Part shown: positions 3,975-51,895 of the stretch, one piece after another
How the letters are laid out: the number at the start of each line of letters is the position of its first letter
Position numbering within the stretch: the stretch's first letter is position 1
IMG/VR virus record: IMGVR_UViG_3300020410_001077
Span: 1-57,082 of that record
DNA length: 57,082 nucleotides
Source of the DNA: a virus
Strand: one strand, 5' to 3'
Program-made: the position numbers and the translations under genes
The notes under the pieces: model-generated
What the model saw: the letters and a program-made list of their open reading frames with translations, nothing else
The model's database searches: none
What the model was told of the DNA's origin: nothing

Positions 3975-6900
3975 TGGCAATTGGTGATCCTTGGGATTCC
4001 TCCTATAATCCCTCTTATCCAAACCTAAGAAATCAAAGAACTGGCAAGAAATCTTGGTGGCCAGACGCTTCTGATGAAGTACCTCAAGACGACCCTCTAT
4101 CTTTCAAAGATAGGAGAGGCGGTCGTTTTTGCACTGAGGGCTGTGGCTGTATAGACACTTATTGCGACAACCTAGCTGGAGCAAAATGTCAGCTACCTCC
4201 AGAAATAGCTGTTACTATTATTAGAACTGCTGATGGAAGATATCAAGCTCGTGCAGGAATAGAAGGTGGAGCAGGAGAAACCTACCATCTTAAATATTCT
4301 AATGGTGCTTGGAGAGGTAGTAGATGTTGCAGTCAAACAGCGACTGATGCATTAAGTTATGCTTGTGATCCATGTAAGGTAACTACTCTTCCTAATGGTA
4401 AACCTTCTGAGTGTCATTACGCAAACAATAAATATGTGACACTTGATTCTGATAAACAAGTAGGAGATGGATTTCAAGTAAGAGATGATTTCGATTACGA
4501 CAAAGCGCTACAAGGAGATAACTGGCCTAGAAGAGGTGCTGATGCTTGGATGGTGCCAGAAGTCTATGGCGTAATGCTTCCCGGTGGCGGAACAGACATG
4601 CTGAATTCATCCGTCAGAGATGGAGAAAGACCTATTTGCTGGGATGTAAATGGAGTCCCAAATTATGGGATAACTACAGAAGACGACTGCATAGATATAA
4701 ATGGTCTTTGGAGCGAGAATGATCCAAACATCAAAAATAACAATGTAGAAGACAGAGCTGGACAAAGACTAGTAGACCTAAAAGGAACAAACCTACAAAA
4801 AACACACTTCTCTGAAAATAGAGCTGATGCACTAATAAATATAAAAGCAAGAGAACGTAGAATATTTGTCACTCCTGAAGGATATTATGCTCATAGCTCT
4901 TACAATGCAATTCACGGATCTGGAGCAAATAAAGAAAGCGCTTGCTTTGAAGATGGGGCTGTACCCTTAAAGAAAACACCTTGGTGTAGACATCCATTTG
5001 ATGCTACTGAAGTTGAAGCTTTTTGTACCAACCCTGATAAAGGTGAGTCTAGTTGTGAAAGTTCTGGTGCAACTTGGCTTCTTGACGATAAAGAAGAATG
5101 CACCTTAAGAGGTCTTTGTTATTCTCCTAAAGATGGTGAGCCTACAGTTAGAGATCAGCTCATAAAACCAGCATGTCTTAAGAGACCAACAACAAGCAAT
5201 GGGACTCCTACAAAGTTTCCCGCATTAAATCAATATGATTGTGAAGTTAGATTTCACCACACTCATGATTGGCATTATGAAACTCAAGAAAATTGTGTTC
5301 TTTATTCTGGGGAAGAAGTATACGCTGGTTGTTATAGTGGTGCGTTTGGCGATGTTTGGGAAGGAGATGTTGCTACAGAAGAAGAATGTCTTGAAATCGA
5401 CGAAAGGATTTGGAAGCATCCAAATGTTTTCATTCCTTACGATTTTGTTGATTGGGAATATGAACGCCAGTCTTGTTGTGGACAAACTTTATTAGATGAA
5501 GATCATCCTTTTCACACTCCGCAAATATCTGGTGGAGCAGCAAACACAAGAAAAAATACTGTTTGTATAACTCCTTATTCAGAGGTGATTCTTTCGCCTT
5601 CTACTATTACTGGAAGCAACGCTCCGCAAACTGGTGCAGAAGGTAGTTGCACATCAGTAGGAAACCAACATGATAGAGTTCTATTCCATTTAGATGGTGA
5701 AAGCTACTGGACTCTTACGATACGTCCCTGTAACTTTTGGGGTGCTTGCTTAGAAAAAGGTGTTCCTAGACCAGACCCATACGACATAAAGGGACAACAA
5801 GATAATTATTTTGATACTACATGTGGAGAAGAGGTTATGCTCTTTTTGCCTGTAGATCAATTTATGAATTGCTCTAACTTTAATCTAACTCTCGGCAAAG
5901 AATCTCAGCTTCGTTCTGGTTGGCCAGAATCTCAGCCTTTGTGGGACCCTAAAATGGGCGACCAAATGGGTAACCCAGTAAATGAGCTTTTTCAAAAGGG
6001 TGCTGGTGGAGCTGCTCCTCCGCTTGCGATGAAAGGCCCAATAGGATATTTTCCGGGAGATGCTATAGAAGGCATACAACATCAGCATTGGTGCGCCTAT
6101 CCTGATGCAAACTATGATGGTATTGCGGATGGTGGTAAGGATCAATGTCAAGCGTATCATTACTACAATCATAACAAAGGAGAATACTTTGGCGAGTTGA
6201 TGAATGCCAAAGGAGCTGATGCATTCTATGGGTTCAACATACAACCTCAACCATTCAAAGCGACGGAAGAAAAACAAAATAGAGCTAAAGGCCCTGATCA
6301 AGCTGCTGCACATCATAAATATTGGCAAGCATGTACTGCTTATGTATTAGGGCATATGGCTGGTGGTGGTACTTGGTTCTGGAATTATGGTCCAGATTAT
6401 TTCATGTATTATGATTTCATAGCATTTGATGAAATGACTATTGGTACGGGGCCTATCGCAGTAAAAAAATATGATGGCTTTTGTAATGAAGTAGCCACAA
6501 AAGCTAAAAAATATGTTGATGAACATGTAGGATTTTTGAGAAGTGGCGATTGCGGCTATGGTAATGGTGCTGGGTGGGTTGGTTGGATTCCATTTGATGG
6601 CTGGACGAATAACCTTTCTTGCCCTGAATGTGAAGAGCAAACTAAAGCAAGTTGTGGAAAAACAGGCTCTTGTGTTGCAGCTGATGGCAGTTTTGAACAT
6701 GCTACGCCAGAAGACTGTGAAGCTTCAGGAGGAGAATTCAACATTTGTTGTGAATGGTTTGAAGGATGTGATCGCAGAAAGCTAGTAAATTTCAAAGACG
6801 TTGTAGAAAATAGTGCTACTCCCATATGGGAAGAGGCAAAAACCGAAGCAGAGTGTGAAAAGCCTATGGATGAAGGAGGGGCTGAAGGAAATTGGAGTGA

Positions 6901-9900
6901 TGGATGTTCTCCAGCAGGCATTGCTCTTGCAGAAAATCAAGAATGCCCTCAAGTTCAACCAGTACCTGAAGCTTTCGTAGATATTGTATTAGGGAAAAAG
7001 CTAGGTGAATGTCTGCTAGAAGACGGTACATTAATCCAAGATTATGAGACAGAAGAAGCTTGTAACGGTAGAGATGGGGATAATACTTGGACTGGTGCTA
7101 GCGTTGGAGGTTCTGATTCAAGCTATCCACTAAGAGAGCTGGAAGGAGTCATTAAAGCCAGACCTTCTGGACCTTCAACAAGTGGACTCGTTGATACAAG
7201 TAGTATAAAGAAAGGTTTTAGTGACAAAGTAGGAGGAGGATATTCAAGAAGAATTCTTGGATCAGAAGGAAGCGATACCGGCAACTCAATGAGTTACTGG
7301 CACGATACTGGTCTATTCCCAAAGGGAGAAATGGCTAGCTATGTCAATGACCATTGCTTAGGAATCAAGCAACACAAACGAATCCAATATGCCAGCAACG
7401 AAAAACCAATCAAAATTACTTCAAGGAACCATTTGCTCAAAGATGGAGACTTGGTACATACCTACAATGTCATGGGCAATTTTGCTGCCAATGTTATGTA
7501 CCAGCAGGATTGGCAAGAGATGCAATGGGAAGATAAACTTTATAGCCCATGTTCAGGACCAAATTGTGAAAACTTAGTATGGCCAAATTCTGTATGTCCG
7601 TATACGTCTGCTTGCCTAGACGATTCTCAAGGCAAATGTATTAGACTGTCTGATGACTCAGAAGTTGATCTAAAGAAAGAGGACTGTCTTGGACCTGTTT
7701 ATAAATGGGACGCATCAACTGATGCAGGAAGTAAGTTAGAGTGTGAGTATGGAAAATGTTCAAAGAAAAGAGAAGATGGAACAGTATGTGACAGAAAGAC
7801 TGATTGCGAAGCTGATGCCGATATATGCAAGATGCAGGATGATAATGGTGATTGTCCTTCAGGATTTACTGTTGATGCAGATAAAGCTCCGGGAGAAGAG
7901 TGTGGTTGTGTAAAAGATGATGCAGATGGTCCTCCGGGATGTGGTGGAGTATGGGAAGGCGGAGGAGGTACATGGGAACTCAGTTGTGATAGTAAATACT
8001 ATGCTTGTTCCGGTGAAATGATTAATGGTGAAATTCCTCCACCAGCTGACTTCTTTGTTATTAAAAATGTAACATTAGACACATTTGACTTATATACATG
8101 CGATAAGTATCCAGTAGATGGAAGGATAATAAACAAAGCAAATATTGATACAACTGAATGTGTAGAGGAAGTTGAAGAAGGTTGTATTATGAACTATCGA
8201 CTTGGTATGGGTGCAGCAGAAGCGCCTGAACAAGTCAGTTGGATCACTAAAAAGCTGGCAGAAAATAAGGGAATACCATCTCAAGAACCTACACAATTTC
8301 GTTGTCTAGATACATATACCGGCAAGCTCTCATTCCAAAATAATGGAAAGTCTACTCATATTCCAACAGGCGATACCATAACAAACAGTGAGACTTCAGG
8401 CGCTCCGGTAGACGAAGAACACACTTGTTACAAAACGCAATCTGATGGAGGAAAGGCTTGTGCGGAAGCAGATTGTGATGCTCTTGGTATATGTTTTAAC
8501 ACCATAGATGAAACTGGTGCATTAGACGAAAACGGAAATCCAAAAAGTAAAGCAGACTGTACGGACTTTGCTGAGAGATGGACGACTTCTTGGAGAAACT
8601 ATGACACTTTTGAAGATGACGAAAAGACCGCAGATAATGAAGCAGAAATAAATTGTGCTTTGTATGGTACTTGTACTGTAGTAGTAGGTTACGAATACAA
8701 CGTCAATGCATTTATGAAAAAAGAAGATTGTGATGCACTCGCTCAAGTGTATGCCGTATACGACCCTAGCGTTGATGTAGACCACAAAAACCAACTTTAT
8801 GTTAATAGATGTCAAGATGCTGACGCAAAACTTTTAAATGACAAAGACCTTCATTCTGGAACTACAGAAGAACAAAAAGAGGCATGTGAAAGTAAAGGAA
8901 AATGTTATGACTACGATGGCGATGTAGTTGATGGAATAAATAACAAATCCGATTGTGAAGAAAGTGGATTTGAGTTTAAAGGCGCTACATTTATTGAAGG
9001 AAGATATGCAGATTGTGTTGATTTGAATGATGACGATCCTTTCAAGACATGTTGGTCGCAAGCTTGGTATGGTGACTTAGGTGTACTGGATGTTGGTAGT
9101 GAACTTACTTCGGGCAGAGGAAAGCCGAGTGTTGGTGTTTATAAAACATGTCCATTCACCGGAGAGTTTGATTATTGGGGACATCACGAAGATATTGGTG
9201 TTGAAGGTGGATATATTGGACATTACGAAGATGATGAAATAGATAGTCTATATAGATTTGGTTTCGGCGGTCCGGGATATAAATGGGAAGAAAGAGCAAA
9301 TGATTACTATGTTCAAATAGAACAAAAAGGAATATGTCCTGTTTGCTGTGACCACTTTATGCCAAACAAGTTAGTTGCAACTGTTACTGGCCAATCTAGC
9401 GAGATATTAGACTATATTGGCTGCGGCATGGATGAATGTGAAGCTCCTACTGCTGATGATAGCCAAAGTTTCAATGCGGCAAAAGCATTAAAAAATGAAG
9501 GTTATTGTTGCTATGATACTTTCCATGGCTGCGATCTTAGCGATTTGCCAGAATGCGAAGATGAGTTCAGAAGACATATAGCAGACCCAAATAATGTTGA
9601 CATTACATTTGGAACATGTACAGAAGGTAGTGGACGCGTTAGAACCTTCGTGTGGAGAAAAAAAGGCTGTGATGGTCCGAACGACACGTTTACTCCTTTA
9701 ACGCACTCTGGTGGCGTTTCTGAGTGTAATATGTTTTTAAGAAAAAGACCTACCTTGTTTGGGGATACTAATTGCAGAAAATGTTCATCAGTTTACACCT
9801 CTCGAAACAAAACGAAGACTGTTAGTGAAACAGGAAACACCCAAATACAATACATAGGAGTAGACAAAGACGGCAAAAAAACTGATTGTTGTTCAGATAC

Positions 9901-12900
9901 TGCCTATTGTGAGGCGTTAGTGTCTGACAATAACACCGATATCATAGGAAATTGTTCACATCCATATTTGCCATGTAAAGAAGCAAAATCATGTTCAGGG
10001 ATAGAAGAGAAAAATTGTAGTGATGCAAATGTAGGGGAAGTAGTTCAGATCACTTCAGCATTGACAGCGACATGTACTAAAGTTTCAGATGCACCTGAGT
10101 CTGCATATATTTGGGCATTTGATCCTTGCTCTTGTTATCCAAATTTTGTTGAGATGAAATATGAACCCGAAGTCGTTGAAGACATTGGAGATGGTACTTG
10201 TCACGTTAATGGAAATGGAGATGAAGGATATGATAATGATGCATATACAGGATGCGGCCCAACAGTTCTTTCTACAACGGCAGACGAAACTTGCGTTGAC
10301 CATGCAAATAGCCATGCACCTGTAGATGAAACTTGTCCCGGATTACAGTCTTTAGATGTTCCTATGGAATATGATGGCATTGTTTGGAGATCTGAATGGA
10401 CTTTAATGAACACAGTTGGTACACATCAATGTGATTTAGGCTTGCATAGATTCAAATGGCCTTCAGCTTGCCAACCAACTGGACCAAATTTAGATTTCAG
10501 CCCCTATACGGCATTCAAATCAGGAGATGAGTTAGTAGCAATAAATGCCGATTGCGATGCTTGTGACATGCCTCAATATGGAGGAATAGCTGGCGGAGTG
10601 CTAGTAGATGGCACAAGTACAGACCTAATATTAAGAAATGCAAAACCTCCTAGTCTGCCACAAGATGGTCACTTTATTAGATTAGTAATGGGCTGTGGAA
10701 ATTCTATACCTTCAATGGCGGCTTATAACAGTGGTGATATAGTTGATGGTGGGTTTGGACCTACTGGAGGAGACAACTATAGACAAAATGGTTTAGATAT
10801 TTGGGCAGAAATAACAAATTGTACATTTACAGACTTCATGGGGTCTGAGGGGCTAAGGGTTGACAACGTAACTTCTGGCATACAGGGAACGCCACCTTGC
10901 GATACTGGAGGATTAGTTGGATGTTTACCAAAACGGTTGATTACCGGAGACTCTTGGAGAAAAACAGGAAAGCCTAGTGCGCTAGAAAGAAGATATACTT
11001 TTGCTGGAAGATGTATATCCAAAACTGATTGCGGTCCAAGAGGGGCATGTGTTGATACGGAATGTTGTACATACACTGGAGTAGACTACCCCTTCAGAAC
11101 AGGCGGAGGAAGTCCACCAATTCGCGCTCCTTTGTGGAGCGGCGGTGTCGCTTGTTCTACTGGTGGCGATATAAGTCACAGATGTCAAGCGTATGGATTT
11201 GACCCAATTCCAAACAAGCCAGCAGAGCAATTTACTGTTCGGTATGTCAAAGATGTTGATCCAGAAACAGGAGAAGCTACTCTAGTTATACCTGCTTATC
11301 CACCTACGTTTGGGGGTAGACATTGTGCTTATGAGAAAGGCACACCAATTGGTATTGGATTAGCAGAATTACAACAAGCAGAAACGGATACATTTGGCAG
11401 TTATTCCAGAAGTAATAAATCAAGGAATCCATATTTACCTGCTGGAGGAACTATACTCAATACAGATATCCCAAGAGGGGATAATATTCCAGACAAAGAT
11501 GGAGATGCGGGTCGTGGAAGCGGTCAGTATATGGAGATTAGGGTTGCTGATGTATCAAAGCTAATCACAAAGAATCCTAGAAAAAATAGACATCTTAGAA
11601 TTTACGATAGGACAACAACCCAAAACGGTAATCCAATATCGGCTACTACTTTTGAATATATGAATATGAAGCAGAATTTAGAGCTTCCCCAACCATATGG
11701 TTTGAATCCATGGCCGGTCGATCACCAGACACATTCTTCTCTTAGCAGACACATGTCAATGTGGCCAAAGGGTGTTCCTATGGGACCATCTAATGTTGAA
11801 AGTTTAAGAACAGATCCAACTGGTTCTATAACACAGCCGGGAAGAATTGGTCCGAAACCAACCGTTGATAATCTGAATAGAATGTTTAGGTACAAAGAGG
11901 TAGATACTGGTGGAGGAATGACCACTCCAATTCCAGAGATACTGCCAGTTGAGCCAGTCATGATTAATGCATTTGAAAATATCTATTCAGATCAAGATTA
12001 CTTCTGTACAAACAATGTATACAAAAATAACTCAACATGTGTTGGAAATGGACATCTCTGGATACCGCATTTTTCACACACAGAAGTGGCTACGCATTAC
12101 GACCATGACTTAGCTGACGCAGAAAAAGTCGTTATTAGTGGTAGCGTAGTTTATCCCGCCACCTGCAAAGGCACAAGAATGGGATACTGTGTTGATGATC
12201 GTTATGGCATGAACGTAAGCAGAATGGACATAAATGAGTGTTCTGAAGGAGCTTGTGTAGATGTAGCAACAAACACAGGAATAACAGACTCTAATGGCGA
12301 TCCTATTACTGATAAAAATGAATGTGATAGAGTTGGATTTGGAGGAATACCAAACCCTGTAACTCCCGGAGGATTAGCTGAATTTCAAACCAATGGAGAA
12401 TGGGTTCAATTATATGAAGATACTGGAGACCCAGAGAGTCCATTAGGAATGGATGGAGACAAATTCTTATGCGAAAGAATATTTGGTGGCGATTGGGTAA
12501 TTGGAAGACGAAACGATGAAAAAGATGGGTATAAATACAAAGATCCATTAAATCTAAAACCATTAGAAATTAGTGGTGGACAAAAAACTGGAGACGCAAA
12601 AGATTTCTTTGTAGAAGGATGTCCTGTCGGTTGTCAAATTAATGGATTCTATTTGCAAGATCCATGTCAACCTCCTAGTAAAAATAGCCCTCAAGGACAA
12701 TGTTTTGAGTGTGTAGAAATAGTATATGAAGATGACTCAGGCAACGAACAGAGGGAAATGAGATGTCCTAGAAGCCCAGCTGATGGTAGCTATGTTGTAA
12801 GAAAACGTGGTTGTCAAAATGCAAAATATGACAACAGAGAAGACTGCAAAGAAAATGGCTGGCATTGGTGGGAACCAGTAACAGCAGCAACAAGGTTTGC

Positions 12901-14260
12901 ACTTCATGATGAATTAGAGTTGGTTGTTCATGACGCATCTCAATTAAGAAGCAATCTTGAAGCAAATAAACCAACTCCTAGATTTGGACAAGCAAGCGAT
13001 TGGGAATATGACCTATCGCAAAAACCAAAGACATTCACTAAAGATGCTGGATTCTTTGGAGAAGGAGATAAGTTAGCTGGTTGGGCTGGAATCGGCGGAC
13101 TAGGAACTTGTACGTTTCCAGCAGGTACTGTATGGAAAAATACAGATGGTGACATTGTTGATCCTCCAGCAGGAATAGATACCAAAGCTGGTTGTGAACG
13201 AGATTTCTGCACTCTTTACGAAATTGATAATCAATCCGACTGTACATCAAATGGTTATGATTGGATAACAGGCGTATGGGACTACGAAATAGACACATGT
13301 AATTCAATCAGAGATGCTGTATTCTCAGATGTATTTAATATGTGTATTGACTTGAATACATTAGATCAACAGTTCCCATTTTATTTCCCTGTTGATAATA
13401 GTTATGTTCCTGACGACTCTGAGGAAAGTTTGGAAATAGCTAGACTTTGTGACATGAGTGATTCATGTGAATCAATCCGACCATACAAAGAATGTAGAGA
13501 TGTTAGTGACGACCAAGCTGGAACATGTATATACTTAGTTGATGGCAATGAAGTAACCGAAAGCGTTACAGCATCTGAGTGCGGCCCAACAGGAGTGTTT
13601 ATTGGGCCAGTTATACAAAAAACAAAGAAAGAATGTGGAGAAGCAGGATTAACTCTTGGAGCATCCATTGATACACAAATAATAAATGAATTTGTTTGTA
13701 TTGATAGTAGTGGAAACACCTTGAACGTAAGGACTCCTGCTGAATGTACTAAGATTGTAAAGGGTACTGTGAAGTATCTTGGAAAACCTGTAGCAAATTC
13801 AGCTGATGATAGAAAATTAAACTTGATAACTCAAAAAGAAAAGTTCTTAGAATTATCGTCTCCAGAAGCTATGTTAATGGGTCACGAAGTCGGAATAGGT
13901 TTAGCTCCTAGAAACTTTAAAGGAGTTATTTATGCTCCACAAGCAGAAAATGAAAAGTTTAATGAATATGCAGATCCTCACTGGAGAGCAGTTTGGAGTA
14001 GGCATGGAGGAGCATTTGATATTATTATTGGATATCCACCTCCGGTAAATAATTGCAGACAAGGCAATAGCAATAAACCAGTAAATATGGATTTCTATTT
14101 GGGTTTCGATCAGATATGTTGTAATGAGAGAGGTCCATTAAACTTTCATCAATGCGAAGAAAAATGCTGGACCCATTATCTAGGACCGCACTTAGAAGAT
14201 ATGGAACTTAGGTACGGAATACATGGCGATTCAATAATGCATGTAAACATACACGAATAG
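3974..14260 (+). CDS. Giant cysteine-rich repeat protein, probable virion adhesin or fibre
   Basis: A single uninterrupted frame of 3428 residues. Its start overlaps the upstream stop by one base. It is very rich in Cys, Asp, Gly and Trp and has no transmembrane segment or recognised catalytic domain. By eye I count about 15 copies of a loose module: a Cys, 6-20 residues, an acidic residue plus Cys, three residues, Gly, then Trp or Phe. Clear short copies are at residues 351-368, around 2679, at 2947 and around 3080; longer ones carry an inserted acidic hairpin between the cysteines. The N-terminus has CGCIDTYCDNLAGAKC, and the C-terminus (about 3370-3428) has paired cysteines. Paired-Cys modules of this kind suggest an elongated, disulfide- or calcium-stabilised fibre or receptor-binding protein. 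That role is inferred. Confidence 0.8.
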   Translation: MAIGDPWDSSYNPSYPNLRNQRTGKKSWWPDASDEVPQDDPLSFKDRRGGRFCTEGCGCIDTYCDNLAGAKCQLPPEIAVTIIRTADGRYQARAGIEGGAGETYHLKYSNGAWRGSRCCSQTATDALSYACDPCKVTTLPNGKPSECHYANNKYVTLDSDKQVGDGFQVRDDFDYDKALQGDNWPRRGADAWMVPEVYGVMLPGGGTDMLNSSVRDGERPICWDVNGVPNYGITTEDDCIDINGLWSENDPNIKNNNVEDRAGQRLVDLKGTNLQKTHFSENRADALINIKARERRIFVTPEGYYAHSSYNAIHGSGANKESACFEDGAVPLKKTPWCRHPFDATEVEAFCTNPDKGESSCESSGATWLLDDKEECTLRGLCYSPKDGEPTVRDQLIKPACLKRPTTSNGTPTKFPALNQYDCEVRFHHTHDWHYETQENCVLYSGEEVYAGCYSGAFGDVWEGDVATEEECLEIDERIWKHPNVFIPYDFVDWEYERQSCCGQTLLDEDHPFHTPQISGGAANTRKNTVCITPYSEVILSPSTITGSNAPQTGAEGSCTSVGNQHDRVLFHLDGESYWTLTIRPCNFWGACLEKGVPRPDPYDIKGQQDNYFDTTCGEEVMLFLPVDQFMNCSNFNLTLGKESQLRSGWPESQPLWDPKMGDQMGNPVNELFQKGAGGAAPPLAMKGPIGYFPGDAIEGIQHQHWCAYPDANYDGIADGGKDQCQAYHYYNHNKGEYFGELMNAKGADAFYGFNIQPQPFKATEEKQNRAKGPDQAAAHHKYWQACTAYVLGHMAGGGTWFWNYGPDYFMYYDFIAFDEMTIGTGPIAVKKYDGFCNEVATKAKKYVDEHVGFLRSGDCGYGNGAGWVGWIPFDGWTNNLSCPECEEQTKASCGKTGSCVAADGSFEHATPEDCEASGGEFNICCEWFEGCDRRKLVNFKDVVENSATPIWEEAKTEAECEKPMDEGGAEGNWSDGCSPAGIALAENQECPQVQPVPEAFVDIVLGKKLGECLLEDGTLIQDYETEEACNGRDGDNTWTGASVGGSDSSYPLRELEGVIKARPSGPSTSGLVDTSSIKKGFSDKVGGGYSRRILGSEGSDTGNSMSYWHDTGLFPKGEMASYVNDHCLGIKQHKRIQYASNEKPIKITSRNHLLKDGDLVHTYNVMGNFAANVMYQQDWQEMQWEDKLYSPCSGPNCENLVWPNSVCPYTSACLDDSQGKCIRLSDDSEVDLKKEDCLGPVYKWDASTDAGSKLECEYGKCSKKREDGTVCDRKTDCEADADICKMQDDNGDCPSGFTVDADKAPGEECGCVKDDADGPPGCGGVWEGGGGTWELSCDSKYYACSGEMINGEIPPPADFFVIKNVTLDTFDLYTCDKYPVDGRIINKANIDTTECVEEVEEGCIMNYRLGMGAAEAPEQVSWITKKLAENKGIPSQEPTQFRCLDTYTGKLSFQNNGKSTHIPTGDTITNSETSGAPVDEEHTCYKTQSDGGKACAEADCDALGICFNTIDETGALDENGNPKSKADCTDFAERWTTSWRNYDTFEDDEKTADNEAEINCALYGTCTVVVGYEYNVNAFMKKEDCDALAQVYAVYDPSVDVDHKNQLYVNRCQDADAKLLNDKDLHSGTTEEQKEACESKGKCYDYDGDVVDGINNKSDCEESGFEFKGATFIEGRYADCVDLNDDDPFKTCWSQAWYGDLGVLDVGSELTSGRGKPSVGVYKTCPFTGEFDYWGHHEDIGVEGGYIGHYEDDEIDSLYRFGFGGPGYKWEERANDYYVQIEQKGICPVCCDHFMPNKLVATVTGQSSEILDYIGCGMDECEAPTADDSQSFNAAKALKNEGYCCYDTFHGCDLSDLPECEDEFRRHIADPNNVDITFGTCTEGSGRVRTFVWRKKGCDGPNDTFTPLTHSGGVSECNMFLRKRPTLFGDTNCRKCSSVYTSRNKTKTVSETGNTQIQYIGVDKDGKKTDCCSDTAYCEALVSDNNTDIIGNCSHPYLPCKEAKSCSGIEEKNCSDANVGEVVQITSALTATCTKVSDAPESAYIWAFDPCSCYPNFVEMKYEPEVVEDIGDGTCHVNGNGDEGYDNDAYTGCGPTVLSTTADETCVDHANSHAPVDETCPGLQSLDVPMEYDGIVWRSEWTLMNTVGTHQCDLGLHRFKWPSACQPTGPNLDFSPYTAFKSGDELVAINADCDACDMPQYGGIAGGVLVDGTSTDLILRNAKPPSLPQDGHFIRLVMGCGNSIPSMAAYNSGDIVDGGFGPTGGDNYRQNGLDIWAEITNCTFTDFMGSEGLRVDNVTSGIQGTPPCDTGGLVGCLPKRLITGDSWRKTGKPSALERRYTFAGRCISKTDCGPRGACVDTECCTYTGVDYPFRTGGGSPPIRAPLWSGGVACSTGGDISHRCQAYGFDPIPNKPAEQFTVRYVKDVDPETGEATLVIPAYPPTFGGRHCAYEKGTPIGIGLAELQQAETDTFGSYSRSNKSRNPYLPAGGTILNTDIPRGDNIPDKDGDAGRGSGQYMEIRVADVSKLITKNPRKNRHLRIYDRTTTQNGNPISATTFEYMNMKQNLELPQPYGLNPWPVDHQTHSSLSRHMSMWPKGVPMGPSNVESLRTDPTGSITQPGRIGPKPTVDNLNRMFRYKEVDTGGGMTTPIPEILPVEPVMINAFENIYSDQDYFCTNNVYKNNSTCVGNGHLWIPHFSHTEVATHYDHDLADAEKVVISGSVVYPATCKGTRMGYCVDDRYGMNVSRMDINECSEGACVDVATNTGITDSNGDPITDKNECDRVGFGGIPNPVTPGGLAEFQTNGEWVQLYEDTGDPESPLGMDGDKFLCERIFGGDWVIGRRNDEKDGYKYKDPLNLKPLEISGGQKTGDAKDFFVEGCPVGCQINGFYLQDPCQPPSKNSPQGQCFECVEIVYEDDSGNEQREMRCPRSPADGSYVVRKRGCQNAKYDNREDCKENGWHWWEPVTAATRFALHDELELVVHDASQLRSNLEANKPTPRFGQASDWEYDLSQKPKTFTKDAGFFGEGDKLAGWAGIGGLGTCTFPAGTVWKNTDGDIVDPPAGIDTKAGCERDFCTLYEIDNQSDCTSNGYDWITGVWDYEIDTCNSIRDAVFSDVFNMCIDLNTLDQQFPFYFPVDNSYVPDDSEESLEIARLCDMSDSCESIRPYKECRDVSDDQAGTCIYLVDGNEVTESVTASECGPTGVFIGPVIQKTKKECGEAGLTLGASIDTQIINEFVCIDSSGNTLNVRTPAECTKIVKGTVKYLGKPVANSADDRKLNLITQKEKFLELSSPEAMLMGHEVGIGLAPRNFKGVIYAPQAENEKFNEYADPHWRAVWSRHGGAFDIIIGYPPPVNNCRQGNSNKPVNMDFYLGFDQICCNERGPLNFHQCEEKCWTHYLGPHLEDMELRYGIHGDSIMHVNIHE

Positions 14261-29497: not shown

Positions 29498-31125
29498 GAT
29501 AAAAGGTCTTTCCTTTTTTGTTCCCATTGGTTCCTTCTATTACAAAGGCCAACCATCATTTCGTAGGCTTCTTCTTGGCCAAACTCTTCATAATTTGGTT
29601 TGACAAATTTATAGGAGTCTTCGTTAAGATACATTTCTCCAGCACCATTAATATACATTCCGTAGTTCAGGTCTCGTATTAATCTAGATTCAAAGTATGT
29701 TCCTAACTTTTCTTGGTCTCCTAGCACATCTGTTATTAACCATCTAGCATATTGAGAAGGAGGTAGATCAACATTTAGTTGGGCTGCTGGTTGATGTATT
29801 CTAGCAGGAGCGCCCCAACTTTGATTTGATGGCCTAATATCTACGCTATCAAAGTATTCTTCCCACTTTTTAGCTGTCTTATCCCATTGATAGTATTTTT
29901 CAAAATTCAATCTTGTTGTATTAGATAAAGACTTTCTTTCGACTTCGCTAAGATCAAAGAACTTTTTAATCTCTCTTGCCGTGTTCTCATTATCTGGGAC
30001 TGCTCTATTGCAGGCTGTTTCTACTTCGTTATATAGGGCTTTTGTTTTTAGTGGAACTCCGCCTAATTTTCTTACTACACTACTCATTGCTGAGTAATCA
30101 ACACTCATGACTGGAACACCACAAGCCGCTGCTTCTACTTGAGGTAGGCCAAAACCCTCGCTATTTGCATATTGAATATATAAATCAAATAGATTCATAG
30201 TGCTTGCTAGGTACTCATAAGATACACCTTTTTGCACGTTTGATAATCCGGCAGTAAACTTTCCACAAGATCCGCATTTTCTTCTAGCATCAGAGAAGAA
30301 CGAAGGAAAAGTGTGTCCGCAACTATTGCAGACATAGGTGAATAATACTTTGCTAGACAAAGAGTATTGATTCAAAAGTTTTGGTATATCCCAACCGAGA
30401 TCAGGATAGCTAGTATGGCAATACAAGTATGTGTCGTTGTCTCCAGACATATCGAGGAACAATCTAAATGCCTCAAACAAGTCAGGAAACAACTTCCTTC
30501 TTTGGTTTCTCATCACTGTGCCAACAAACTTTGCTTTGGGATCAAAACCAAAACTAATTTTATGTTCTTGTTTGTCTTCTACAGGCACATAAGCAGCGTC
30601 AGCAGAAGGAGGAGCGCTACCTAAGCATTTAACTTTACCGTTTGATTCTTTCTTTAGTATGTCATGTCCCCAATCGGAATAATTGAAGACACCGTCTGCA
30701 TTAGCAAAAGTCGCTAACCATTGTTCGTTTTGAGGAAAAGCATCGACAGTAGGCATTATCACCCAATGATAATAAGGTCTGAACGGAGACCTTTCTTGAA
30801 ATTCAAGCATCCAAAAGTCTCGAATGTCGCAAACAATATCAGGAAGAAAATCCAAAAGCACAGCCTCAAATTTCCATTCACCAAATTGGTTTGTGGGAAC
30901 TGAGTCGTATACTTCTTTTTGTTCATCATTTACTGGAAGATTTCCGTAAAAATGCCAAGGAATAGATGATGCGTTTGGACTGCCTTGTTCTCCATAACTA
31001 GCGAACTCTGCTAACTCATACTTTCCAGTGGCGTGCAGCCTTTTCATAATTTCACGAAGATAAGTAGCATATCCAGTATTAAGATATGTAGCTTCACCGC
31101 AAAATAGTATTCTTTTTTTTCTCAT
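29494..31125 (-). CDS. Large GT4-like glycosyltransferase with embedded zinc ribbon
   Basis: A 543-residue protein. GT-B features include ILFCGEATYLNTGYATYLREI at the N-terminus and NSEGFGLPQVEAAACGVPVMS (from residue 321, Glu323 and Glu331) in the donor domain. Between them at residues 266-287 is an inserted CNSCG...CGSCG zinc ribbon, which GT4 enzymes normally lack. A further C-terminal region of about 120 residues follows (ARWLITDVLGDQEKLGTYFE...). The first gene of the island after the sigma factor, overlapping it by 4 bases. The insertion may recruit a partner or acceptor. Confidence 0.8.
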   Translation of the reverse strand: MRKKRILFCGEATYLNTGYATYLREIMKRLHATGKYELAEFASYGEQGSPNASSIPWHFYGNLPVNDEQKEVYDSVPTNQFGEWKFEAVLLDFLPDIVCDIRDFWMLEFQERSPFRPYYHWVIMPTVDAFPQNEQWLATFANADGVFNYSDWGHDILKKESNGKVKCLGSAPPSADAAYVPVEDKQEHKISFGFDPKAKFVGTVMRNQRRKLFPDLFEAFRLFLDMSGDNDTYLYCHTSYPDLGWDIPKLLNQYSLSSKVLFTYVCNSCGHTFPSFFSDARRKCGSCGKFTAGLSNVQKGVSYEYLASTMNLFDLYIQYANSEGFGLPQVEAAACGVPVMSVDYSAMSSVVRKLGGVPLKTKALYNEVETACNRAVPDNENTAREIKKFFDLSEVERKSLSNTTRLNFEKYYQWDKTAKKWEEYFDSVDIRPSNQSWGAPARIHQPAAQLNVDLPPSQYARWLITDVLGDQEKLGTYFESRLIRDLNYGMYINGAGEMYLNEDSYKFVKPNYEEFGQEEAYEMMVGLCNRRNQWEQKRKDLLS

Positions 31126-31607
31126 TTGTTGTGATCTTGCAAAGTTTTTATTATGACTTCTATCCTGCTCTTGATGTCATTCTTGCTAGACATCATAAAG
31201 CTAGCTATCTCTGAGTTGGTATAACCTTCTATTCTACAATTGAGTATGAATTTATCATCTTCAGATATAGACTCTGGTAATAAATTTTTTATTTTTTCTT
31301 TTGTTGAATACTGTCTATCTTGTTCTATTACAACGCGTACTTTTTTTGATCCATGATTCTCTATTTTTTTCTGCAATCTGGATATGGAGTTTTTTATGCA
31401 AACAGAAGCGTATTTTACAAATTGAGATTTACTGTTATCATACTTCCTAATTGCTTTTAGCAAACCTATTAAACCGGCTTGAACATAGTCATCAAAGTTA
31501 GGGTCTTCAAAAAAACGAAGAGCCTGCGAAATAACTAACCCATAATTGTCTTGGATAAGTCTTTCCTCAAGCTCTTTGGCGTCTATCGCTTTTTTATTGT
31601 TCGACAC
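31122..31607 (-). CDS. Small phage RNA polymerase sigma factor (sigma-70 family)
   Basis: A 161-residue protein. Region 2-like: FDDYVQAGLIGLLKAIRKYD (38-57) followed by FVKYASVCIKNSISRLQKK (63-81), matching the core-binding and -10 recognition helices. Region 4-like: SEDDKFILNCRIEGYTNSEI (115-134) and the following helix (135-157) as a helix-turn-helix. It lacks region 1 and most of region 3, as do late-gene sigma factors such as T4 gp55 and many phage sigma proteins. It would direct host RNA polymerase to phage promoters, probably late genes. It overlaps ssb by 14 bases. Confidence 0.8.
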   Translation of the reverse strand: MSNNKKAIDAKELEERLIQDNYGLVISQALRFFEDPNFDDYVQAGLIGLLKAIRKYDNSKSQFVKYASVCIKNSISRLQKKIENHGSKKVRVVIEQDRQYSTKEKIKNLLPESISEDDKFILNCRIEGYTNSEIASFMMSSKNDIKSRIEVIIKTLQDHNK

Positions 31608-47964: not shown

Positions 47965-48972
47965 TTAAAAATCGTCCTCTATGTTTCCTACTGCATATTC
48001 AGTTACGCGAGTTTCAAAAAAGTTCTTACATTTTTCCAAGTCAATTATTTCACTCATCCACGGAAATGGATTTTTGGTGTCTTCATAAGGACTCGGTAAA
48101 TTTAGATTTTCTAGTCTTCTATTCGCTATGAATTGAACATAGTCAATAAACATTTCAGAGTTCAATCCTAGAATACCATTTGGAAGAACGTCTCTTGCGT
48201 AGGCAAGTTCAAGCTCCATAGCTTTGTCTATATGTTCTAAAGTCTCTTTTTCAAATGCTTTAGTCCAAACTTTTGGATTATCTTCTCTGATTCTGTTAAT
48301 CAAATTAGTTCCAAATTTGATATGTAGACTTTCATCACGAAGTGTGTATTGAATTTGTTCTCCAATTCCCGGCAGCTTGTTTTGTCTATTAAAAGAAAGT
48401 AGCATTGCAAAACCGGAAAAGAAAAATATACCTTCGCAGATAATGTAGTAAGTAATAATGTTTCTTAAGAATTCTCTCTTGCCTTCTAGCGTATTGATGT
48501 TGAAGTCTGGACGATTGATATCTGTGCAGATGTTCATCAAGAACTCATCTTTAGACTTTATGCTAGGTATTGAGTTATAAGCTTGGTAAACTTCGCCAAT
48601 CTTTAAACCAAGAGAATCACAGCAATAAACTACTGTTAGATTATGCAGACTTTCTTCATACGCTTGTCTAAGAATGTATTGGCGACATTCAGGATCTGTC
48701 ACATACTTGAATATGCTAAGCAAAAGGTTGTTAGCCACTAAGGACTCTGATCCTGCAAAGAAACCAAGAGACCTTTTGACTACTAGTTTTTCATCAGTAG
48801 TCAACGAGTCAGATCGCCATTGTTCAATGTCTTTAGCCATTGAGATTTCTGTTGGCATCCAATTATTTGCGGCTCCATCAATGAACAAATCCCATGCCCA
48901 TTTGTTTGTATGGGGAAGTATTTGATTAACTACCGCAACTTTATCTGAAATTATTTCTTTAGTCTTCTTCAT
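47965..48972 (-). CDS. nrdB: Ribonucleotide reductase small subunit, class Ic-like R2
   Basis: ATG 48970-48972 overlaps nrdA's stop (TAATG); 335 residues. Ferritin-like fold with metal residues Glu76, Glu107, His110, Glu180, Glu214 and His217. Spacing is the same as in E. coli R2 (84/115/118/204/238/241), but the first ligand is Glu and not Asp, and the radical Tyr122 position is Val114. Glu at the first ligand with no Tyr is the hallmark of the class Ic (Mn/Fe) subclass. It generates the cysteinyl radical in NrdA so dNDPs can be made. C-terminus ends in an acidic tail. Confidence 0.9.
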   Translation of the reverse strand: MKKTKEIISDKVAVVNQILPHTNKWAWDLFIDGAANNWMPTEISMAKDIEQWRSDSLTTDEKLVVKRSLGFFAGSESLVANNLLLSIFKYVTDPECRQYILRQAYEESLHNLTVVYCCDSLGLKIGEVYQAYNSIPSIKSKDEFLMNICTDINRPDFNINTLEGKREFLRNIITYYIICEGIFFFSGFAMLLSFNRQNKLPGIGEQIQYTLRDESLHIKFGTNLINRIREDNPKVWTKAFEKETLEHIDKAMELELAYARDVLPNGILGLNSEMFIDYVQFIANRRLENLNLPSPYEDTKNPFPWMSEIIDLEKCKNFFETRVTEYAVGNIEDDF

Positions 48973-51431
48973 TACTGACAACTCTCACAATCTGGATCAT
49001 CTAATGCGCAGGCTTTAATCTGGCTCAAATCTTCTTCAGGTAATGCTTCCTCTTTAGGAGCGTCAACAGTAGATTTTTCGAGTCTTGTTGCTGCCTTGCT
49101 TCTCAAATAATATGTTGTTTTTAATCCTTGTTCCCAAGCGTGCATATACATGTCGTTGAGATATTTTAAACTTGTGCCTTTGTTATATAGATTCAGAGAC
49201 TCTCCCATGTCTATCCACTTTTGTCTCTCGGCGGCAGCGTCTATGAGAATTGTTGCTTCTATATCAAATGCGCTTTTGAATTCTCTTTGTATTTCTTCAT
49301 CTAAGTTTATAGACAAGACATCGCCATCTGCTGCCTTCAGAGCTTCAATTAAGTCTTTTCCCCATATACCCTTCTTCTTTGCGGCTTCTACAAAGTGTTC
49401 ATTAATCATAGTAAATTCACCGCTTAATGTTGAGTAAACAAAAAGCACTGAATAATCAGGCTCAATAGATTGAGAGCATCCCTGTATATAAGAAATTGTT
49501 GCAGTAGGAGCGATAGCCATAACATTTGAGTTTCTCATTCCATACTCAGCTATATGGCTTCTAACCTTATCCCAATCCATTTTTTCAAAATCAGATGGTT
49601 TGTAATGGTTATCTTTACCACTCTTTAAGTGTTCTGGGTGTCTCTCGTTCATCAATCGACAATAAGTGTCGATAGGCAAATTACCAAAACTCCACTCAGA
49701 ACCTTCATAAGATTCGTAGTGTCCTCGCTCCTTCGCTAGCTTAGAAGAAGTAAGAATAGCATGGTAAGAGATGAATTCTTGTATCTTGCCACAGAGAACA
49801 ACAGCGTCTTGGGAGTTGTAAACAACTCCTAGCTTATGTAGCAAGCCGTGAGTACCCATAATACCTAAGCCAATAGGACGATTTCGCAGGTTAGACTTGG
49901 CGGCTTCTTTGGTTGGATAGAAATTGAGATCAATAACATTATCCAATCCTCTGACTGCCACCTCTACTGTTCGTTGCAATTTCTTCCAATCAATAGTGCG
50001 AACCTTAATATGGTTTTCAAGATTGATAGAAGCCAGATTACAAACAGCAGTCTCTCCTACTTCAACAACTTCACCATCTTCATACAGAGTTGGCTTTGTA
50101 TGAAGAAGTATTTCTGTACACAAGTTGGAAGAATGAACAACGCCTTCATGCTTATTGCTATAGCGAATATTAGAAGGGTCTTTAAAAGTAACCCATGGAT
50201 GCCCTGTTTCGTAAAGAGACTTTAGCATCTTCTTCCATAAGTCTTTGGCGTTTATAACACGGAAGTTTTTGATCTCTCCCTCTTTCGCCATTTTTTTATA
50301 TTTGTTATAAGTTCTGGTAAATTTTCTGCCATATGTTTCATGCAGGTCAGGACATTCGGATGGATCAAATAAATACCAGTCCCTTCCTTTCTGAGCCGCT
50401 AGCATGAACTCATCACAAATCCATAATGCAGTATTCATATCATGACAACGACGACGATCATCACCTGTATTTTTTCTAAGGTCTAAAAAATCTTCAACGT
50501 CAAGATGCCACACTTCTAGGTAAGCGCATCCAGCACCTTTTCGTTTACCGCCTTGATTAACCCCGACAAGAGTATCATTAAATATCTTCAACCAAGGAAT
50601 TAATCCAGAAGACTGACCATTTGTTCCCTTAATATAAGAACCAGTAGAACGAACAGAACTCCAATCTACACCAAGACCTCCAGCATACTTTGAAAGTCTA
50701 GCCTGACCGTGAATGGTTCCAAAGATACCATCAATAGAGTCATCTACTGTACTTAAATAACAGGACGATAATTGAGAGTGGCAAGTTCCACTATTGAAAA
50801 GAGTAGGAGTAGAAGGTGAGTATCTAAACTCAGACATCATGTTGTATATTTCAATGGCTCTTTCTTCTTTATTTTCTTCATTCAAACAAAGACCCATTGC
50901 GACCCGCATATAGAACGCTTGTGGAGTTTCCATACGACGACCTTCTTTGTGTATGAAGTATCTATCGTAAAGAGTTTGTATTCCTAAATACTTAAAATTC
51001 CTATCTCTATCTATACATAGATTTTCGCTCAAGAATTCCAGATCATAGCTAAGCATTGATTCACTGAGTCGGTCTTCTCTTACAAGAGCCTTTATATGTT
51101 TTATAAAGCAGGATTTATATTCGTCTTGAAAATCACCATTGACGCTCTTACCAAAAACTTCCTTATATAAACTAGAAAGCAGTAAGTTTGTAGCTACATA
51201 ATTGTAGTTCGGCTCTTGTTCTATCTTGGAACGAGCCGACATTATAAGAGCAGTATCTATTTCAGATGTCGTGATTTTATTGTAGAGCTGTAGACTTGCA
51301 TCCAAGACGACTTCGCTAACAGATACATCAGTAAGGCCATCACAGGCTCTTTCTACGCATTTGTTAATCTTGTCTAAGTTTATCTGTTCTAATCGTCCGT
51401 TGCGCTTCTTAACCTTAATATCTGATGTCAT
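48972..51431 (-). CDS. nrdA: Ribonucleotide reductase large subunit
   Basis: An 819-residue class I enzyme. N-terminal ATP cone (KKRNGRLEQINLDKINKCVERAC...). Active-site cysteine region NSGTCHSQLSSCYLSTVDDS, NLCTEILL (Asn/Cys/Glu triad), and TTYYLRSKAAT Tyr pair. The C-terminal CESCQ provides the swinging cysteine pair that is reduced by thioredoxin. It reduces ribonucleoside diphosphates. Two thioredoxin-like genes at 54635-55222 may serve it. The start ATG 51429-51431 has GGAT upstream. It is the last gene before the gap with the small RNA candidate. Confidence 0.95.
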   Translation of the reverse strand: MTSDIKVKKRNGRLEQINLDKINKCVERACDGLTDVSVSEVVLDASLQLYNKITTSEIDTALIMSARSKIEQEPNYNYVATNLLLSSLYKEVFGKSVNGDFQDEYKSCFIKHIKALVREDRLSESMLSYDLEFLSENLCIDRDRNFKYLGIQTLYDRYFIHKEGRRMETPQAFYMRVAMGLCLNEENKEERAIEIYNMMSEFRYSPSTPTLFNSGTCHSQLSSCYLSTVDDSIDGIFGTIHGQARLSKYAGGLGVDWSSVRSTGSYIKGTNGQSSGLIPWLKIFNDTLVGVNQGGKRKGAGCAYLEVWHLDVEDFLDLRKNTGDDRRRCHDMNTALWICDEFMLAAQKGRDWYLFDPSECPDLHETYGRKFTRTYNKYKKMAKEGEIKNFRVINAKDLWKKMLKSLYETGHPWVTFKDPSNIRYSNKHEGVVHSSNLCTEILLHTKPTLYEDGEVVEVGETAVCNLASINLENHIKVRTIDWKKLQRTVEVAVRGLDNVIDLNFYPTKEAAKSNLRNRPIGLGIMGTHGLLHKLGVVYNSQDAVVLCGKIQEFISYHAILTSSKLAKERGHYESYEGSEWSFGNLPIDTYCRLMNERHPEHLKSGKDNHYKPSDFEKMDWDKVRSHIAEYGMRNSNVMAIAPTATISYIQGCSQSIEPDYSVLFVYSTLSGEFTMINEHFVEAAKKKGIWGKDLIEALKAADGDVLSINLDEEIQREFKSAFDIEATILIDAAAERQKWIDMGESLNLYNKGTSLKYLNDMYMHAWEQGLKTTYYLRSKAATRLEKSTVDAPKEEALPEEDLSQIKACALDDPDCESCQ

Positions 51432-51456
51432 AATCTATCCGTTATACGCCTCTTAC

Positions 51457-51605
51457 AAAAAATAGAGCGACACTTGTGAACCAAGCGATTTGTTAGAGGA
51501 AACTTACTAAAATATTTTATTAAACTACTCACTTGGTGCGACAAGGGCTTGTTGAGTTTGTGTCGCTCTAGCTCTCCACTTGTAGGAAGCTCTTTATAAC
51601 CCAAC
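51457..51605 (-). ncRNA. Candidate structured small RNA with its own -10 and T-run
   Basis: A gene-poor stretch between nrdA and the next gene. Read on the minus strand: TATAAT (plus 51611-51616), then about 150 bases ending in an 11-bp inverted repeat (arms plus 51463-51473 and 51560-51570) followed by six T. Within it, a second stem (CTTGT/ACAAG 51473-51477 with 51541-51545, and ACCAAG/CTTGGT 51480-51485 with 51532-51537) nests inside the large stem, and an early segment near 51600 can pair alternatively with the segment around 51550. This looks like a small RNA or leader with competing folds. No good -35 was seen. Confidence 0.5.
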
Positions 51606-51610
51606 AAGGT

Positions 51611-51616
51611 ATTATA
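51611..51616 (-). promoter_or_regulatory. TATAAT -10 element upstream of the small RNA
   Basis: A perfect TATAAT on the minus strand, about 7-12 bases upstream of the proposed RNA. The -35 hexamer at 17 bases is poor (GGCC-flanked AACTG). It also coincides with the GTG of a spurious 63-codon frame (51428-51619), which argues that the frame is not a gene. Confidence 0.4.
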
Positions 51617-51700
51617 CACGATTTCAGCTAGGCCAGTTTTTAATTTCCTAAAGAGGCTGTAAGTTTGTTCAAGTAAGACCTACTTGGGCTGAACCAGATT

Positions 51701-51895
51701 TTAGCTCTTAGATGACTTCTTTTTCTTCTCTTGAAGGACATAATCTGGATGCACCCAAATGGGGGTTTTCCCCCTATAGTAAGCAACCATTTTAAAGAAG
51801 CCGTTTTGCTTCGGCAATACCCAAGCGTGGGTATTTTTTGAAATTTCCATCTTTTTCGCTAGGTTTTTTTCTGCGATATTCTCGTCTAATTTCAT
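51701..51895 (-). CDS. 64-residue hypothetical protein
   Basis: ATG 51893-51895 overlaps the stop of the propeller gene (ATGA), good evidence of translational coupling. The peptide starts MKLDENIAEKNLAKKMEISK and continues HAWVLPKQNGFFKMVAYYRGKT and a Lys/Ser-rich tail. No family recognised. The DNA underneath contains three consecutive hairpins (51761-51774, 51797-51812, 51816-51835), which is unusual for coding sequence. The protein is probably real but could instead mark a regulatory RNA region. Confidence 0.5.
   Translation of the reverse strand: MKLDENIAEKNLAKKMEISKNTHAWVLPKQNGFFKMVAYYRGKTPIWVHPDYVLQEKKKKSSKS

What the first reader, a model, noticed from the sequence alone, without database searches (positions are those of the whole stretch)
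51457..51605. Candidate small RNA with competing hairpins upstream of nrdA
A -10 element, nested inverted repeats of 11 bp and 5-6 bp, and a terminal T-run fill the only ~270-base gene-free gap near nrdA. An early segment near 51600 can pair alternatively with the segment around 51550, as in attenuators or antisense RNAs.
Basis: seen in the sequence. Interest (0 to 1): 0.55.

Follow-up and report, generated by a model that had tools for sequence, protein, structure and literature searches.

The report
Knotted RNA guarding phage nucleotide-reductase genes
In front of the genes with which a group of uncultured viruses make DNA building blocks lies an apparently undescribed, knotted RNA that starts at its own promoter and usually ends in a stop signal before the gene, so it may throttle that gene; it stays in place even where the virus has swapped the enzyme for a different type.

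Summary
The finding is real and larger than described. On the minus strand, right after a TATAAT box (51616-51611), lies a ~150-nt structured RNA (about 51608-51457) ending in an 11-bp stem plus T-run, 25 bases before nrdA. In 86 viral loci (52 distinct RNAs) it forms one family with four helices: hairpins P2 and P4, a long closing stem c/c', and a 5'-end helix a/a' that crosses c/c' (a pseudoknot). Permutation tests support a/a' (0 of 100,000) and P4 (0 of 50,000); c/c' shows compensatory changes. No Rfam match. All 86 loci have a ribonucleotide reductase (RNR) gene downstream (distinct RNAs: 37 class Ia nrdA, 15 class II-like nrdJ); in a pattern scan blind to RNR, 37 of 37. A terminator lies between RNA and enzyme in 48 of 52 by rule; in 26 of 52 the gene starts within 50 nt, leaving little room for another promoter. 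Best explanation: a cis-acting attenuator leader of phage RNR operons, signal unknown (0.45). Main rival: an autonomous trans-acting small RNA (0.33), favoured by a subgroup with a second terminator and promoter-like site before nrdA.

The parts
51611..51616 (-). -10 element TATAAT directly before the RNA (no good -35)
   Evidence: a -10 beginning TATA lies between 18 nt upstream of and 4 nt inside the RNA-model start in 44 of 52 distinct relatives
51457..51608 (-). the structured RNA; true start inferred near 51605 (about 7 nt after the -10), end at the T-run
   Evidence: covariance model hit 51461-51608, 103.4 bits (the window is in the training set)
51598..51608 (-). pseudoknot strand a (CTTGTTGGGTT); the outermost 3-4 bases may precede the transcription start
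51592..51597 (-). A-rich joiner ATAAAG between a and P2
51585..51591 (-). P2 hairpin, 5' strand (AGCTTCC)
51570..51577 (-). P2 hairpin, 3' strand (GGAGAGCT), one A before c
51560..51568 (-). closing/terminator stem, 5' strand c (GAGCGACAC)
51548..51558 (-). pseudoknot strand a' (AACTCAACAAG)
51529..51539 (-). P4 hairpin, 5' strand
51478..51488 (-). P4 hairpin, 3' strand
51465..51473 (-). closing/terminator stem, 3' strand c' (GTGTCGCTC)
51457..51463 (-). T-run (ATTTTTT) after c', forming an intrinsic terminator
   Evidence: run of 5 or more T after c' in 42 of 52 distinct relatives
48972..51431 (-). nrdA, class Ia ribonucleotide reductase large subunit, first gene after the RNA
51701..51895 (-). 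64-aa ORF upstream of the RNA, no Pfam match

Best explanation
A promoter-fused leader RNA of phage ribonucleotide-reductase (RNR) operons that works as a transcription attenuator. Transcription starts at the TATAAT-proximal site; the first bases (a) fold back onto a' and, with P2, P4 and the closing stem c/c', form an H-type pseudoknot. In most members c/c' is followed by a T-run and is itself an intrinsic terminator, so the default product would be a ~150-nt RNA ending before the gene; RNR would be made only when polymerase reads through. A factor or condition during infection (unknown; not tied to one RNR class) would destabilise the fold and raise read-through. Shown: the RNA's structure by covariation, its constant position before RNR genes of two classes, and terminator-like sequence between RNA and gene. 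Inferred: that it is transcribed, that termination is regulated, and in which direction.
For: Helices: the summed own-partner score of a/a' beats every one of 100,000 permutations among 12 divergent representatives, and c/c' pairs 9/9 in 41 and 8/9 in 3 of 44; P4 0 of 50,000 with 21 representatives; pair counts on A3 88.9% vs 30-42% in slid controls, 21 of 32 pairs changed on both sides; RNAalifold finds c/c' and P4 unaided. Position: 86 of 86 loci have RNR downstream, as 52 distinct RNAs 37 nrdA and 15 nrdJ; in the RNR-blind scan, 37 of 37 stretches (29 nrdA, 8 nrdJ). One place with E below 0.01 per record in 19 of 22 records examined, most of them chosen because they carry the RNA. Terminator before RNR: 48 of 52 by an automatic rule (42 T-run after c', 17 separate hairpin, 11 both); two of the four misses (L015, L212) show one by eye. 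In 26 of 52 the RNR start lies within 50 nt of c', so RNR there seems to depend on read-through. The RNA stays when nrdA and nrdJ swap: at least 2 changes forced by well-supported branches, 5 on the best tree; L147 (nrdA) sits among nrdJ RNAs, 82% identical to L141. In 5 of 5 examined relatives without a model hit (L043-L047) a TTGAC promoter runs straight into a short terminator hairpin a few bases before nrdA: the same promoter-terminator-RNR layout.
Against: In the L024-type subgroup a second terminator and a conserved GTANNAT promoter-like site lie between RNA and nrdA (12 of 12 examined), so simple attenuation would not control nrdA there. No antiterminator pairing is conserved (16 of 44). 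Family-wide, few unpaired positions are near-invariant (A-rich joiner, one A beside P2); the A3 subgroup adds a GC just after a' and a few bases of the P4 loop: little sign of a shared ligand pocket. In four members an ORF or ORFs of about 53-145 aa lie between RNA and RNR. L152 has no terminator, and L144 only four T, by rule or by eye. For 6 of the 12 a/a' representatives at least one foreign a' scores as well as their own; one of five measures (further pair types) is not above shuffles. No expression data.
Confidence: 0.45

Rival explanations
1. An autonomous trans-acting small RNA. The gene has its own promoter and terminator; the pseudoknot protects the 5' end, the terminator stem the 3' end, and the RNA acts on host or phage targets or a protein. 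It lies beside RNR because both belong to one DNA-metabolism locus.
For: Separate transcription unit by layout in the L024-type loci (second terminator and promoter-like site before nrdA). Where c' has no T-run a separate terminator usually follows (L032, L034, L035, L168 by rule; L015, L212 by eye; exceptions L144, L152), as expected if ending the RNA is what matters. RNR class can change while the RNA stays.
Against: Not found away from RNR: 37 of 37 in an RNR-blind scan, although upstream genes and RNR class change. No unpaired seed conserved over the whole family. In the compact half there is little room for an RNR promoter after the terminator.
Confidence: 0.33
2. A put/EAR-like processive antitermination element: the folded RNA rides with or modifies RNA polymerase so that it passes the terminator(s) that follow and transcribes the RNR operon.
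For: Sits at the start of the inferred transcript; one or two terminators of differing sequence lie between it and RNR in 48 of 52 by rule; would also explain the L024-type double terminators.
Against: In most members the last helix of the RNA is the terminator stem itself, so the fold is complete only when polymerase already stands on the T-run. No match to any Rfam family; epsC, recalled as the EAR element, is listed as RF01735 in PMC2864571.
Confidence: 0.12
3. Only an ordinary terminator or insulator in front of nrdA; the rest of the RNA has no function.
For: c/c' plus T-run is a good intrinsic terminator; simple terminators precede RNR in several relatives without the RNA (by eye; L043-L047).
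Against: P4 and the pseudoknot a/a', which a terminator does not need, covary across divergent relatives, and c/c' is kept in members where it has no T-run (L015, L032, L152).
Confidence: 0.04

Closest known systems
manA, wcaG and PhotoRC-II RNA motifs of cyanophages (Weinberg et al. 2010, PMC2864571; passages seen)
   Same: Structured RNAs in marine phages near metabolic or photosynthetic genes, found by comparative genomics
   Different: No Rfam match here and other gene classes; the word 'ribonucleotide' does not occur in that paper's main text
Cobalamin riboswitches and an nrdJ-associated motif (both recalled, from no call)
   Same: RNA element before RNR genes
   Different: Here the same RNA precedes both class Ia nrdA and class II-like nrdJ genes, so B12 is an unlikely common reason; no Rfam match. 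The paper recalled for the nrdJ motif is not held, so it was not compared directly
epsC/EAR RNA and HK022 put RNA (processive antitermination; function recalled; epsC listed in PMC2864571)
   Same: Structured RNA at the start of an operon, followed by terminators
   Different: Here the terminator stem is part of the fold in most members; no Rfam match; antitermination untested
H-type pseudoknot riboswitches such as SAM-II and preQ1 (recalled)
   Same: Two crossing helices, A-rich first loop, 3' expression element
   Different: Hairpins inserted in both loops, 9-bp second stem, fused to its promoter; no family-wide unpaired pocket seen

Membership tests
Any Rfam 15 family | Match to a covariance model | tested here: not met
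   Whole window at gathering scores: 0; window 51380-51750 at E up to 5: 0; 12 loci of relatives at E up to 1: two sub-threshold matches, neither on the RNA. The other loci were not scanned
Transcription attenuator leader | Promoter, leader and intrinsic terminator before the gene, same strand | tested here: met
   Window by sequence; terminator rule met in 48 of 52, RNR start within 50 nt in 26 of 52
Transcription attenuator leader | Conserved mutually exclusive terminator/antiterminator structures | tested here: not met
   c/d alternative of at least 6 bp in 16 of 44; a/a' and c/c' share no bases and are compatible
Transcription attenuator leader | Regulated read-through | not testable with these tools
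   needs transcripts or reporters
Riboswitch | Conserved fold supported by covariation | tested here: met
Riboswitch | Conserved unpaired ligand pocket | tested here: inconclusive
   Family-wide only the A-rich joiner and one A beside P2; in the A3 subgroup also a GC after a' and part of the P4 loop
Riboswitch | Binds a small molecule | not testable with these tools
   in-line probing needed
Leader-peptide attenuator | Conserved short ORF in the leader | tested here: not met
   ATG ORF of at least 8 codons closed within the RNA in 13 of 44; the window's GTG ORF is kept at length in 0 of 10 close relatives; other GTG/TTG ORFs not tested
Trans-acting sRNA | Independent transcription unit | tested here: inconclusive
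   Yes by layout for 12 L024-type loci; in compact members the gene follows directly
Trans-acting sRNA | Conserved target complementarity | not tested
   Host unknown; no family-wide unpaired seed seen in the alignment

The most novel reading that the evidence does not exclude
A new class of viral metabolite- or state-sensing RNA that gates RNR, and thus dNTP supply during infection, by pseudoknot-controlled termination, and that was retained while the enzyme was exchanged between class I and class II, so that the RNA rather than the enzyme is the fixed part of the module.
Probability: 0.2. Interest if true: 0.85.

Novelty: new variant of a known kind. Interest (0 to 1): 0.62.

Why it matters
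RNR sets the dNTP supply on which phage replication depends (established knowledge). No RNA element at a phage RNR gene turned up in the listings of the paper searches made here (open-access library only). A structured RNA kept across exchange of two RNR classes would be a regulator tied to the enzyme's function rather than to one gene, and offers a compact system (promoter, ~150-nt RNA, terminator, gene) testable in a reporter without culturing the phage.

Tried and rejected
Generic promoter/terminator scan: listed neither element. Rfam: nothing on the RNA. Cellular genomes: one pattern hit in GTDB (Vibrio, L138), weak in the model (E 0.13) and without this context, taken as chance. Phage records: no blastn match with L024's RNA region; the window query gave four records, matching only within nrdA; six phage records with RNR genes near the top of the hit lists show nothing better than E 4.2, though in one of them, KLEP7, fewer than 200 bases upstream of the match exist in the record. 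Seven pattern hits (L083, L086, L091, L095, L099, L102, L105; model E 0.086-0.27) rejected: L083, L095 and L099 were looked at, with no TATAAT box and no RNR-like ORF seen nearby; the other four were not looked at but score alike. Antiterminator c/d: not conserved. Leader peptide: not supported. Recalled candidates 6S RNA, tmRNA, RNase P and HDV-type ribozyme were considered and dropped: no Rfam match, and the helix order differs from HDV as recalled. Invariant c/c' as a target-recognition sequence: weakened by compensatory changes in L153, L154 and L168.

Rows dropped or added by hand: of the 52 distinct RNAs, L038 (E 0.026) and L168 (E 0.05) are weak in the model and L017, L022 (with L023) are not found by it because strand c has changed; they were kept on position and the remaining features. 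A2 (44 rows) leaves out 8 of the 52: L004, L007, L017, L020, L022, L029, L034, L038. The permutation tests use 12 and 21 representatives. R1 was trained on 28 of these RNAs, which match by construction.

Full report
What is there. The signal is on the minus strand. After TATAAT (51616-51611) come, 5' to 3': a (51608-51598), an A-rich joiner, hairpin P2 (51591-51585 / 51577-51570), c (51568-51560), a' (51558-51548), hairpin P4 (51539-51529 / 51488-51478), c' (51473-51465) and a T-run to 51457. nrdA begins at 51431. The minimum-energy fold gives P2, P4 and c/c' and leaves a and a' both unpaired, free to form the crossing helix. The fold is moderately better than shuffles (z -2.61, 1 of 200).

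Relatives. A NrdA search of viral contigs, pattern scans that do not look at RNR and a NrdJ search, with covariance model R1, gave 86 loci with 52 distinct RNAs. The protein searches return at most 80 loci and both lists were capped. Of the 80 NrdJ loci, 12 have a match at E 0.05 or better. Among 22 whole records, most chosen because they carry the RNA, 19 have it, one place each with E below 0.01; of the three without a hit, G005 (L022) holds the degenerate form and G014, G021 (L046, L050) none. The single GTDB pattern hit looks like chance; that scan used one exact pattern, so the family is viral only as far as this search sees.

Structure. On A1 (28 rows) all 11 pairs of a/a' show changes on both sides; four of five measures exceed nearly all shuffles, the fifth (further pair types) does not (184 of 500). 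On A3 (26 rows) 21 of 32 pairs change on both sides, all five measures exceed all 500 shuffles, and 88.9% of cells are paired against 30-42% in slid controls. A permutation test with free choice of register, on 12 divergent representatives, is never reached in 100,000 trials for a/a', although for 6 of the 12 some foreign a' scores as well as their own; P4 is not reached in 50,000 with 21 representatives. c/c' pairs at 9 of 9 positions in 41 and 8 of 9 in 3 of 44 RNAs, with compensatory forms in L153/L154 and L168. RNAalifold, without being told, recovers c/c' and P4. In A3 a G-C (26 of 26) and a G-U (25 of 26) pair inside a/a' are nearly fixed. Against this, P2 is less regular: 70.5% of cells paired in A3, partly because the alignment shifts it in some rows. 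In L017/L022 c' is kept while c has changed.

Context. RNR lies downstream on the same strand in 86 of 86 loci; as distinct RNAs, 37 nrdA and 15 nrdJ. Three of the 15 nrdJ products were scanned: all match adenosylcobalamin-dependent RNR models best, below the NCBIfam cut-offs but above Pfam's for the RNR barrel domain; the rest are assigned by similarity to one of them. Many loci came from RNR searches, so the less biased number is the scan, whose pattern was derived from RNR-linked members but does not look at RNR: 37 of 37 stretches are model-positive and RNR-linked (29 nrdA, 8 nrdJ); some share identical RNAs. The RNA tree mixes the two classes: 5 changes on the best tree, at least 2 forced by well-supported branches; L147 (nrdA) lies among nrdJ RNAs. 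Many branches of that tree are weak and several are long.

Transcription layout. A -10 beginning TATA lies near the RNA start in 44 of 52; a run of at least 5 T follows c' in 42 of 52; a separate terminator hairpin lies before RNR in 17 of 52; neither by rule in 4 (L015, L144, L152, L212), of which L015 and L212 show one by eye. RNR starts within 50 nt of c' in 26, at 51-150 nt in 22, and farther in 4; in these four small ORFs lie between. In 12 of 12 L024-type loci examined a conserved GTANNAT lies between the second terminator and nrdA. In 5 of 5 examined relatives without a model hit (L043-L047) a TTGAC promoter with a 17-nt spacer runs into a short terminator directly before nrdA.

Mechanism. 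The compact half of the family reads most simply as an attenuator: little space for another promoter, terminator at the gene, RNA beginning at the promoter. The L024 type reads most simply as a separate RNA gene. One account for both is that the RNA was an RNR-operon leader whose terminated product became, or already was, functional by itself. I put cis attenuation at 0.45, trans sRNA at 0.33 and processive antitermination at 0.12. The signal is unknown; B12 alone is unlikely because class Ia RNR does not use it (established knowledge). No antiterminator is conserved, the main weakness of the attenuation reading.

Known or new. No Rfam match on the RNA. Literature searches (full text of an open-access library, of which I saw listings, plus passages of PMC2864571 and PMC9004378) showed no RNA of this kind at phage RNR genes. 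A recalled paper on further candidate RNAs is not held, so prior description cannot be excluded.

Noticed in passing
L043, L044, L045, L046, L047, just upstream of nrdA: TTGAC promoter (17-nt spacer, TAAAGT/TAAATT) running straight into a short hairpin plus seven T, a few bases before nrdA, in 5 of 5: a minimal promoter-terminator-gene arrangement.
   Followed up: partly
L017, L022, L023 upstream of nrdA: RNA relatives in which strand c has changed while c' and the T-run are kept: a decaying or rewired form.
   Followed up: partly
window 31122-31607 (-): Sigma-70-family factor, 161 aa; might serve the TATAAT-type promoter.
   Followed up: no
L141 8261-8755 (-) and similar loci: Cytidine/deoxycytidylate deaminase-family gene directly upstream of the RNA in several nrdJ loci (one of them scanned).
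   Followed up: partly
L024-type loci, between RNA and nrdA: Conserved GTANNAT promoter-like site after a second terminator, 12 of 12 loci examined.
   Followed up: partly
L089, L122, L038, L144 between RNA and RNR: Small ORFs (about 53-74 aa), plus an SNase-like 145-aa ORF in L144, between RNA and RNR.
   Followed up: no
window 3974-14260 (+): A 3428-aa cysteine-rich ORF, perhaps a structural protein; not searched.
   Followed up: no
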